Assembly (NCBI GenBank): GCA_020438295.1
Contig: JAGQUV010000005.1
Location: 1 to 64,000, forward strand
Reading direction: 5' to 3'
Length of the DNA stretch: 64,000 nt
From: Solirubrobacterales bacterium
Lineage (GTDB): Bacteria; Actinomycetota; Thermoleophilia; Solirubrobacterales; 70-9
Each line of letters starts with the position of its first letter. Positions within the stretch are counted from its first letter, which is position 1. Shown here in pieces: positions 60,176-62,820 of this stretch. The notes below the pieces were generated by a model, which worked only from the letters and a program-made list of their open reading frames with translations, was not told the DNA's origin and ran no database searches. Both the position numbers and the translations under genes were made by a program.

Positions 60176-60179
<4 letters not shown>

Positions 60180-61834
60180 TCGGCCTGATCATCTCCGGTC
60201 GCTTCGGCCTCCATGGCCTCTTCGTCCGCTTCGGCCTCCGTGGCCTCTTCGTCCGCATCGGTTTCCACGGTCTGTTCCGCTGCCTCGGCCTCGTCGGATT
60301 GTCCGGCGGCTTCGTCCTGAACGGCTGCCTCGGCTTCGTCGCCCGGTCCGGCCTCCTCGATCTCCTCGGCTACGCCGGCCTCCTCGATCTCGCCGGCCTC
60401 TTCGGTTGCGCCGGCCTGTTCGACCGCGTCGGCCTGTTCAACCGCTTCCGCCTCCCCTTCGTCGCTGGGCTCGACGAACGAGGCCTCGGCCGCCTCGGCC
60501 ATCGCGGCCACCGCAGCCTCGTCCGACTCGGGGTCGGCCAGCAGCGCGACTTCCTCGTCGTCCAGCCCGGCCAGGACGCCGACGTGGCTGGTGCCGAACC
60601 GGGAAAGCGCCTGGTGCTGGGGAAGGCCGCAGTAGGTGGAGCCGCCCACGGCGGCGTTCGGGCAGCGGCGCCCGCTCGAGAGCACCGCCATGCAGCGCCC
60701 GTCGAACTCCTCTTCGCCCTCGTATTCGTGCTGGCTTTCCTCTTTGGCGAACTCGCTCTCCGACTTGATGTCGACCCGCCAGCCGGTCAGGCGGGCGGCG
60801 AGTCGCGCGTTCTGGCCGTCGCGCCCGATCGCCAGCGAGAGCTGGTCGTCCGGTACGACCACGGTCGCCTGCATCTCGTCATCGTCGACCAGGACCTCGC
60901 GGACCCGGGCCGGCGATAGGGCCTTGGCGACGAACCGGGCCGGCTCTTCGTTGTAGGGAATGATGTCGATCTTCTCGCCGCGCAGTTCCGACACGACCAT
61001 GCGGACCCGGGAACCCCTGGGACCGACGCAGGCACCAACCGGGTCGACGCCGTCGGCATGGGAGACCACGGCGATCTTCGACCGGTAGCCGGGCTCACGG
61101 GCGACCCCGACGATCTCGACCAGCTTGTCGGCGATCTCGGGAACTTCGAGTTCGAACAGTCCCTTGATCAGATCGGGGCTGCGCCTCGAGACGACGATGC
61201 TCGGCCCCTTGGCCGATTCCGAAACGTCGGTAATCACGGCTTTGACCCTCATCCCGTGGTCGTAGCGTTCGCTGTAGACCTGCTCCGACTTGGGCAGCAG
61301 GGCCTCGACCCGCTCGCGCAGCTGGACCAGCGTGTACCGCTTGTCCGACTGCTGGATCAGGCCGGTGATCAGCTCACCGACCCGGTCGTGATACTCCTCG
61401 TACATCATCTGGCGCTCGGCTTCGCGGATCCGCTGGTAGATGACCTGCTTGGCAGTCTGGGCCGCGATCCGCCCGAAGTCGTCGGGAGTGACATCCCGCG
61501 ACGTGATCTGGTCTTCGTACGGCGCCAGCACCTCGGGGTCGAGCTCCGGTTCCTCGGGCTCGCGCATCTCGCCGGTCTCGGGATCGATCGTCCGTTCCTG
61601 CTCGGCGATCGCCTCCTCGAGCAGCTTCTCCTCGAGCTCGGCCGGCAGGATCAGCTCGAACACGCGGAAGTCACCCGTCTCATGGTCGAGGTCGACCCGG
61701 GCGTAACGGGCCGCTCCGGGGCTCTTGCGGTAGGCCGAGAGCAGGGCGTCGGCCAGCGCGTCCATCAGCGTGTCGGCCGCGATGCCCTTTTCCTGCTCCA
61801 GCACTCGTACCGCGTCAACAATCTCCTGGGTCAC
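60176..61834 (-). CDS. nusA: Transcription factor NusA with added zinc knuckle and acidic tail
   Basis: 552-aa elongation/termination factor. N-terminal RNA-polymerase-binding domain (about 1-150), S1 (about 150-225), KH1 (about 250-310) and KH2 (about 320-360, [26 protein letters not shown]). Beyond the usual end lies Cys381-x9-Cys391-x10-Cys402-x4-His407 ([19 protein letters not shown] onward), like the short knuckles of DUF5763-type proteins, then an Ala/Glu-rich tail to 552. GTG start 61834 behind AAGGAG overlaps the rimP stop (GTGA). Confidence 0.95.
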
Positions 61835-62268
61835 TTGGCTGCTCCTTCTGCGGTGTCTGGTACGAGATGAGAGCGAGCGACGCTCCCGTAGGGAATGCGG
61901 ACTTCGCGGCCGTCGAATCCGAGGGCCACTTCCTGGTCTTCGGCTTCGAGGATCGTCCCGGTGAAGTTCCGACGGTCCTCGATCGGCTCGACCGTCCTGA
62001 CCTTGGCCCTGCGACCCTTGAACCGGACAAAGTGCTCCGGACGGGTCAGCGGCCTTTCCGGGCCTGGTGAAGACACCTCCAGCGAATGCTCGACCAACAG
62101 GTCGGTCAGGTTCGAGGTGACCCGCTGGCAGAGCTCGAGGGTGACCCCGTCCGGGTGATCGATGAACAAGCGTAGAGAGTCTCCTCCGGCCTGCTCCAGA
62201 GCCAGAAATTCGATCTCGGGATCGATTCCGGCGAGCCGCTGTTCGATTTCTGTTGAGTCGGGTTTCAT
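61831..62268 (-). CDS. rimP: Ribosome maturation factor RimP
   Basis: 145-aa factor for 30S assembly. EQRLAGIDPEIEFLALEQAGGDSLRLFIDHPDGVTLELCQRVTSNLTDLL is the N-terminal domain, with EVSSPGPERPLTRPEHF and a C-terminal SH3-like part. ATG 62268 follows GAAGGAACC. It heads the large rimP-nusA-infB operon, whose leader holds a promoter and a terminator-like hairpin. Confidence 0.92.
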   Translation of the reverse strand: MKPDSTEIEQRLAGIDPEIEFLALEQAGGDSLRLFIDHPDGVTLELCQRVTSNLTDLLVEHSLEVSSPGPERPLTRPEHFVRFKGRRAKVRTVEPIEDRRNFTGTILEAEDQEVALGFDGREVRIPYGSVARSHLVPDTAEGAAK

Positions 62269-62291
62269 CTGGTTCCTTCGACCTGAGGGCC

Positions 62292-62315
62292 AAAAAAAAG
62301 CGGGCAAGGCCCACT
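62292..62315 (-). terminator. Terminator-like hairpin in the rimP-nusA leader (possible attenuator)
   Basis: On the minus strand AGTGGGC-CTT-GCCCGCT is directly followed by eight T residues, a textbook intrinsic terminator. It lies 23 nt before the rimP ATG and downstream of the good promoter at 62348-62376, so it is inside the rimP leader. A competing GGGCC/GGCCC pairing around the T-tract would exclude it. It could also end dtd transcripts. Confidence 0.75.
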
Positions 62316-62347
62316 TTTCGACAAAGCTGGAGGGGAAAAGCTCTCTC

Positions 62348-62376
62348 AGTATAGCCCCACTCCGGCTCCAGGCCAA
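62348..62376 (-). promoter_or_regulatory. Housekeeping-type promoter of rimP-nusA-infB
   Basis: On the minus strand TTGGCC (-35, 62376-62371), 17-nt spacer, TATACT (-10, 62353-62348). Both hexamers and spacing fit a sigma-70-type promoter. The predicted start is near 62341, giving a leader of about 73 nt. Confidence 0.65.
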
Positions 62377-62403
62377 GCCCGGCTCCGGGGCGGCCGGGAC
62401 CGG

Positions 62404-62820
62404 TCAGACCTCGATCAGGACGGTGACCGGTCCGTCACCATTCATGTCTACCCGCATGTCGGCTCCGAACCGACCCGCCTTCGCGTCCAGCAGGCGACAG
62501 ACCAGTTCGTAGAGCGGCTCGGCGATATCACCCGGCGCTGCCCCGATCCAGCTCGGCCGGTTGCCCTTGGAGGTGTCTCCGTACAGCGTGAACTGGCTCA
62601 CGCAAAGGGCCTCGCGATCCCCGAGCGGCTCGTTCATCCGGCCCTCCCGGTCGGCAAAGATCCGCAGCCGCCTCAGCTTCGAGGCCATTTTCTCGGCTTC
62701 ACGCTCGGTATCCCCGGCCGCGACGCCGAGCAGGACCAGCATGCCCGGACCGATCCGCGATATCTCTTCGTCCCCGACCGAGACCGCGGCCGCGCTTACC
62801 CGCTGGACGACTGCCTTCAA
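62404..62820 (-). CDS. dtd: D-aminoacyl-tRNA deacylase
   Basis: 138-aa chirality-proofreading enzyme removing D-amino acids from tRNA. KAVVQRVSAAAVSVGDEEISRIGPGMLVLLGV, the catalytic SQFTLYGDTSKGNRPSW and the C-terminal MNGDGPVTVLIE motif are complete. The ATG overlaps the coaBC stop (ATGA). Confidence 0.95.
   Translation of the reverse strand: MKAVVQRVSAAAVSVGDEEISRIGPGMLVLLGVAAGDTEREAEKMASKLRRLRIFADREGRMNEPLGDREALCVSQFTLYGDTSKGNRPSWIGAAPGDIAEPLYELVCRLLDAKAGRFGADMRVDMNGDGPVTVLIEV

What the first reader, a model, noticed from the sequence alone, without database searches (positions are those of the whole stretch)
62269..62380. Candidate attenuator controlling rimP-nusA-infB
Seen: promoter TTGGCC-17-TATACT, then AGTGGGC/GCCCGCT hairpin with eight T, then the rimP ribosome site. 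GGGCC within the stem can instead pair with GGCCC after the T-tract, so two structures are mutually exclusive. Inference: read-through of a terminator made or suppressed by NusA itself, a feedback loop for the operon encoding it.
Basis: partly seen in the sequence, partly recalled or inferred. Interest (0 to 1): 0.7.

Follow-up and report, generated by a model that had tools for sequence, protein, structure and literature searches.

The report
Attenuator before rimP-nusA-infB, with antiterminator stem
Just before the ribosome- and transcription-factor genes rimP, nusA and infB, this actinobacterium carries a built-in "stop here" RNA hairpin of a kind already known in other bacteria, and in its class of relatives the hairpin's base can instead pair with the very start of the RNA, which suggests how the stop signal may be turned down.

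Summary
On the minus strand a promoter, a GTGGGC/GCCCGC hairpin and T8 lie between dtd and rimP. This is the rimP-leader attenuator described by Naville & Gautheret (2010; terminator stem GGGc...gCCC, NusA feedback proposed). NusA autoregulation through this leader is reported in B. subtilis and proposed in E. coli and S. agalactiae. Here T8 is the only A/T run of 7 or more in 64 kb of 68% GC DNA. The stem pattern occurs once per genome, at rimP, in 14 of 18 genus genomes. Promoter and terminator are conserved through Thermoleophilia whatever gene lies upstream. A different competitor is supported: the 5'-terminal GCUUUUC pairs with GAAAAGU at the base of the terminator's 5' arm. This stem (P1) changes in concert with its partner across five families (own pairing beats 2000 of 2000 shuffles; best of 120 family permutations). 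At the decision point it contests only the U-proximal base of the terminator. I read it as an antiterminator tuned by NusA. NusA as the signal is inferred, not shown.

The parts
62371..62376 (-). -35-like hexamer TTGGCC
   Evidence: weakly conserved: 14 of 36 family f1 leaders have 4 or more of 6 at spacer 15-19
62348..62353 (-). -10 hexamer TATACT, context GGCTATACT
   Evidence: TATACT in 35 of 36 family f1 leaders, median 37 nt before the GGG of the terminator
62335..62341 (-). P1 5' arm GCTTTTC, at the predicted 5' end of the transcript: proposed antiterminator arm
   Evidence: window helix score 6.5; covariation across families
62313..62319 (-). P1 3' arm GAAAAGT, shared with the base of the terminator's 5' arm
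62299..62315 (-). terminator hairpin AGTGGGC-CTT-GCCCGCT (rimP-leader GGGC...GCCC motif)
   Evidence: motif as in PMC2965389
62292..62299 (-). T8 tract; stop site inferred near 62292
   Evidence: only A/T run of 7 or more in the window
62287..62291 (-).
62274..62278 (-). ribosome binding site AAGGA
61831..62268 (-). rimP, 145 aa; its stop overlaps the nusA GTG start
   Evidence: RimP_N and RimP C-terminal domains; RimP models
60176..61834 (-). nusA, GTG start
   Evidence: NusA_N and KH_5; TIGR01953, 363 bits
57837..60179 (-). infB (IF-2); its start overlaps the nusA stop
62404..62820 (-). dtd, upstream neighbour on the same strand, not part of the leader
   Evidence: Tyr_Deacylase; not found upstream of the same leader in many relatives

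Best explanation
Transcription of rimP-nusA-infB starts at the GGCTATACT promoter and meets an intrinsic terminator about 50 nt later, before the rimP start codon. Read-through at this rimP-leader attenuator sets expression of the whole overlapping operon. In Thermoleophilia the first nucleotides of the transcript (window GCUUUUC) can pair with GAAAAGU, the base of the terminator's 5' arm (stem P1). While P1 holds, only the upper GGGC/GCCC part of the hairpin forms, which leaves it about 2 nt further from the RNA 3' end, nearer to pause than to release geometry; when P1 opens, the full stem forms against the U-tract and RNA polymerase releases. NusA, made from the operon, would favour the full hairpin and pausing at the U-tract, closing a negative feedback loop. 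Shown here: promoter, terminator and P1 conservation, and P1 covariation. Inferred: the start site, termination, P1 as an antiterminator, and NusA as the signal.
For: Terminator. It is a single-copy pattern before rimP in 14 of 18 genus genomes, and a GGG...CCC stem with T-run is found before rimP in 115 of 123 distinct loci and in most Actinomycetota families sampled. It stays with rimP while the upstream gene changes: dtd is upstream in 23 of 35 f1 loci but in 0 of 48 f2 and 0 of 17 f6 loci. Promoter conserved. P1: fraction with a strong helix, own / cross-family swap / shuffle, is 0.90/0.34/0.05 (f2), 1.00/0.48/0.14 (f3), 0.88/0.12/0.03 (f8), 0.61/0.37/0.18 (f1); mean helix score 5.72 own against 4.83 sd 0.08 shuffled, and the own-family assignment ranks 1 of 120. 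In nascent RNA the arm is paired upstream more than in shuffles in f1, f2, f3, f6 and f8. At the decision point GGG is in the terminator with P about 1 in f1, f2 and f8, but the stem base is split; window P1 0.81, terminator base 0.32. Precedent: PMC2965389, B. subtilis NusA autoregulation (PMC12288461), S. agalactiae short and long rimP transcripts (PMC4448216).
Against: No RNA data for any of these organisms. The whole-leader fold is not unusual (z -0.89), and the P1 stem alone in the window is weak (-3.6 kcal/mol, z -0.92). P1 is not universal: a phylum-wide duplex test shows no excess, and several f1 genera fit it poorly. f6 fails the strict test (no strong uninterrupted helix) and passes only when one mismatch is allowed. 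A purely sequence-based alignment of the 5' arms failed to register them across families and gave little excess, so the P1 case rests on the search-with-swap tests. NusA dependence is taken from other phyla.
Confidence: 0.6

Rival explanations
1. Plain rimP-leader: a NusA-sensitive intrinsic terminator with no functional antiterminator. P1 is a by-product of a pyrimidine-rich start region facing a purine-rich stem base.
For: Naville & Gautheret saw no antiterminator in the general rimP-leader; the phylum-wide test is negative; P1 is weak in the window.
Against: Swap controls between families, all with purine-rich arms, are clearly below own pairing, with compensatory differences such as GCUUUCG/CGAAAGU, CAUUUC/GAAAUG, ACUUUCA/UGAAGGU and ACUGCGA/UCGGAGU.
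Confidence: 0.22
2. P1 is not an antiterminator: it stacks on the terminator core, or folds the 5' end, to protect the RNA or to help the hairpin form.
For: P1 and the GGGC/GCCC core can coexist side by side (-10.0 kcal/mol against -10.8 for the best alternative).
Against: P1's 3' arm overlaps the U-proximal base pairs of the terminator, and its 5' arm resembles the terminator's 3' arm, as expected for competition.
Confidence: 0.1
3. The hairpin is the 3' terminator of the coaBC-dtd operon.
For: dtd lies directly upstream on the same strand.
Against: The conserved promoter lies between dtd and the hairpin, and the same leader sits before rimP where dtd is not upstream.
Confidence: 0.04
4. One reading: GGGCC in the stem pairs with GGCCC after the T-tract to prevent termination.
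For: The five pairs exist.
Against: Less stable than the terminator, made too late, and mostly absent outside the genus.
Confidence: 0.02

Closest known systems
rimP-leader attenuator (Naville & Gautheret 2010, PMC2965389)
   Same: GGGc...gCCC terminator stem with a U-tract, just before rimP of a rimP-nusA-infB operon; NusA proposed as regulator
   Different: Here a 5'-terminal stem (P1) competes for the stem base and covaries; the paper reported no visible antiterminator in the general form
NusA autoregulation of the B. subtilis nusA operon by leader attenuation (reviewed in PMC12288461)
   Same: Same gene; an intrinsic terminator in the leader controls read-through
   Different: NusA stimulation is reported there and only inferred here; this is a high-GC actinobacterium with very few U-tract terminators in the window
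S. agalactiae gbs0413-0418 (rimP-nusA-infB) leader (PMC4448216)
   Same: Intrinsic terminator 31 nt after the start site; short and long transcripts
   Different: RNA evidence exists there; no P1 described in the passage read
Classical antiterminator/terminator leaders
   Same: An upstream segment pairs with the terminator's 5' arm
   Different: Only the lower stem is contested; no ligand-binding, leader-peptide or tRNA element was identified

Membership tests
rimP-leader attenuator (PMC2965389) | terminator stem with GGGc...gCCC | tested here: met
   GGGC CTT GCCC at 62312-62302
rimP-leader attenuator (PMC2965389) | U-stretch directly after the stem | tested here: met
   T8 62299-62292
rimP-leader attenuator (PMC2965389) | 4-130 nt before rimP in a rimP-nusA-infB operon | tested here: met
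   23 nt between T8 and ATG; rimP, nusA and infB identified
rimP-leader attenuator (PMC2965389) | motif specific to the rimP leader | tested here: met
   one match per genome, at rimP, in 14 of 18 genus genomes
rimP-leader attenuator (PMC2965389) | no visible antiterminator in the general form (a reported property rather than a definition) | tested here: not met
   P1 supported in Thermoleophilia
rimP covariance model of Rfam (RF01770 as I recall the number) | match to the model | tested here: inconclusive
   no match at E up to 10; gammaproteobacterial rimP leaders fetched here did not match at gathering score either, so the scan has little power
NusA-autoregulated attenuator | termination in the leader rises with NusA | not testable with these tools
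   needs in vitro transcription or NusA depletion
Antiterminator-type attenuator | mutually exclusive upstream helix supported by covariation | tested here: met
   overlap is with the stem base only, and function is untested

The most novel reading that the evidence does not exclude
A clade-wide attenuator in which the extreme 5' end of the transcript sets how far the terminator stem closes towards the U-tract, turning one hairpin between pause and release geometry. Since P1 begins at about the first nucleotides of the RNA, choice of start site as well as NusA could tune the operon.
Probability: 0.25. Interest if true: 0.6.

Novelty: new variant of a known kind. Interest (0 to 1): 0.42.

Why it matters
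NusA feedback on its own operon is known from Proteobacteria and Firmicutes, and the general rimP-leader was reported without a visible switch. A covarying competitor stem in a high-GC class gives a concrete, testable mechanism, and the persistence of this one U-tract terminator suggests that the loop is old and under selection.

Tried and rejected
GGGCC/GGCCC switch: drawn and scored, rejected. Terminator of dtd: rejected. Phylum-wide duplex test for an antiterminator: no excess, so P1 is claimed only for Thermoleophilia. MAFFT alignment for covariation misregistered the arms; replaced by a search with identical freedom for own and swapped arms. An outer helix between the leader and the sequence after the T-tract, seen by eye in f1, was not pursued. 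Rfam: nothing credible in the window. Resemblance of AGUACCGAGAG in some f2 leaders to the sarcin-ricin loop was considered and left as a likely coincidence. Paper searches found no later description of an antiterminator in the general leader in the library held.

Full report
What is there. The window lies in a 2.15 Mb draft genome whose nearest relatives are Solirubrobacterales (Thermoleophilia, Actinomycetota); the nearest named record found is a Thermoleophilia MAG with 90% identical RimP. On the minus strand the order is coaBC, dtd, a 135-nt gap, rimP, nusA, infB. The rimP stop overlaps the nusA GTG start and the nusA stop overlaps the infB start, so one leader can govern all three. The gap holds TTGGCC-17-TATACT, the hairpin AGTGGGC-CTT-GCCCGCT, T8, and the rimP ribosome site.

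More than chance. The hairpin alone has z -3.1. Its pattern occurs once in the window and never in 100 shuffles. T8 is the only A or T run of seven or more in 64 kb at 67.9% GC, and no other strong hairpin+T site exists on either strand by my scan. In the genus the strict pattern occurs exactly once per genome in 14 of 18 genomes, each time next to rimP.

Conservation. I read the sequence before rimP in relatives of the same genus, family, order, class and phylum. A GGG...CCC stem with a T-run was found before rimP in 115 of 123 distinct loci of the first set (a loose regex, so a few hits are doubtful), and in most other Actinomycetota families, though not in three genomes of family f27 and some others. 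The -10 is conserved too: TATACT in 35 of 36 f1 leaders, TGC before a TA...T hexamer in most f2 and f8 leaders, TGA before TATAAT or TATACT in most f6 leaders. dtd lies upstream in 23 of 35 f1 loci but in none of 48 f2 or 17 f6 loci, so the element belongs to rimP, not to the gene before it.

The known kind. Naville & Gautheret (PMC2965389) ranked rimP first among genes with predicted attenuators, found the unusual GGGc...gCCC stem, saw no antiterminator in the general form, and named NusA as the best candidate regulator. A 2025 review states that B. subtilis NusA is autoregulated by NusA-stimulated termination in its leader (PMC12288461). In S. agalactiae RNA-seq shows termination 31 nt after the start of this operon (PMC4448216), and that paper cites work on NusA feedback in E. 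coli.

GGGCC 62312-62308 can pair with GGCCC 62291-62287, but at -8.4 against -9.7 kcal/mol for the terminator. GGCCC directly after the T-tract occurs in 31% of f1 leaders, 8% of f3 and none of f2, f6 or f8. It is transcribed after the stop site, so it cannot prevent termination. I reject it as the switch.

A different competitor. Reading the leaders side by side showed that the first nucleotides of the predicted RNA complement the base of the terminator's 5' arm: GCUUUUC/GAAAAGU in the window, GCUUUCG/CGAAAGU in f2, ACUUUCA/UGAAGGU in f3, CAUUUC/GAAAUG in f8, ACUGCGA/UCGGAGU (one G.G mismatch) in f6. I tested this with controls given the same freedom of search. A strong uninterrupted helix was found for own arms, arms swapped from other families, and shuffled leaders in 0.90, 0.34 and 0.05 of f2; 1.00, 0.48 and 0.14 of f3; 0.88, 0.12 and 0.03 of f8; 0.61, 0.37 and 0.18 of f1; f6 has none by this strict measure. 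Allowing one mismatch, own pairs score 5.72 against 4.83 (sd 0.08, largest 5.10) over 2000 shuffles of partners, and matching each family's leaders with its own arms ranks first of 120 family permutations. Folding the nascent RNA gives the same direction in f1, f2, f3, f6 and f8. A phylum-wide duplex test shows no excess, so the claim is limited to Thermoleophilia; related species are not independent, and a plain sequence alignment could not register the 5' arms.

How it may work. With RNA visible up to the T-tract, the GGG of the terminator is paired in nearly all f1, f2 and f8 ensembles, while the stem base is split between terminator and P1; in the window P1 has 0.81 and the terminator base 0.32. 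The states P1 plus GGGC/GCCC and full terminator plus a small 5' hairpin are nearly equal in energy (-10.0 and -10.8). [quoted passage not shown] Reported values are 7-9 nt for intrinsic terminators and 11-12 nt for pause sites (PMC8060035). I infer that P1 shifts the balance from release towards pausing and read-through, and that NusA shifts it back. None of these functional steps is shown here.

Verdict. The attenuator reading is well supported (about 0.9), P1 as a real conserved pairing in Thermoleophilia is well supported (about 0.8), P1 as an antiterminator and NusA as the signal are likely but inferred (about 0.6). It is a new variant of a known kind.

Noticed in passing
62292-62299: The only A/T homopolymer run of 7 or more in a 64-kb window of 67.9% GC DNA, and it is the attenuator's T-tract.
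   Followed up: yes
L087, L096, L117, L119, L124 and other leaders, just before the terminator: GTAC or GTACC is enriched before the stem in f2 (GTAC 0.46 against 0.11 in shuffles), f6 (0.53 against 0.13), gammaproteobacterial leaders (7 of 7), f23 and f26, but is not in the window's own leader; possibly a protein site.
   Followed up: partly
L240, L244, L247: Some f6 leaders carry a second GTGGGT...CCCAC hairpin with T's further upstream, so perhaps tandem terminators.
   Followed up: no
L250, L254, L263: Several f69 leaders have a different hairpin before rimP (GTCGGTG...CACCGACTTTT) without the GGGC motif.
   Followed up: no
60176-60820: NusA has a long acidic C-terminal tail and a Cys-rich stretch ([27 protein letters not shown]); Pfam gives only insignificant zinc-finger-like hits.
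   Followed up: partly
f2 and f3 leaders, between the P1 arms: A variable GC-rich hairpin sits between the P1 arms in many f2 and f3 leaders (for example CCGGC...GCCGG) and is short or missing in the window's genus.
   Followed up: no
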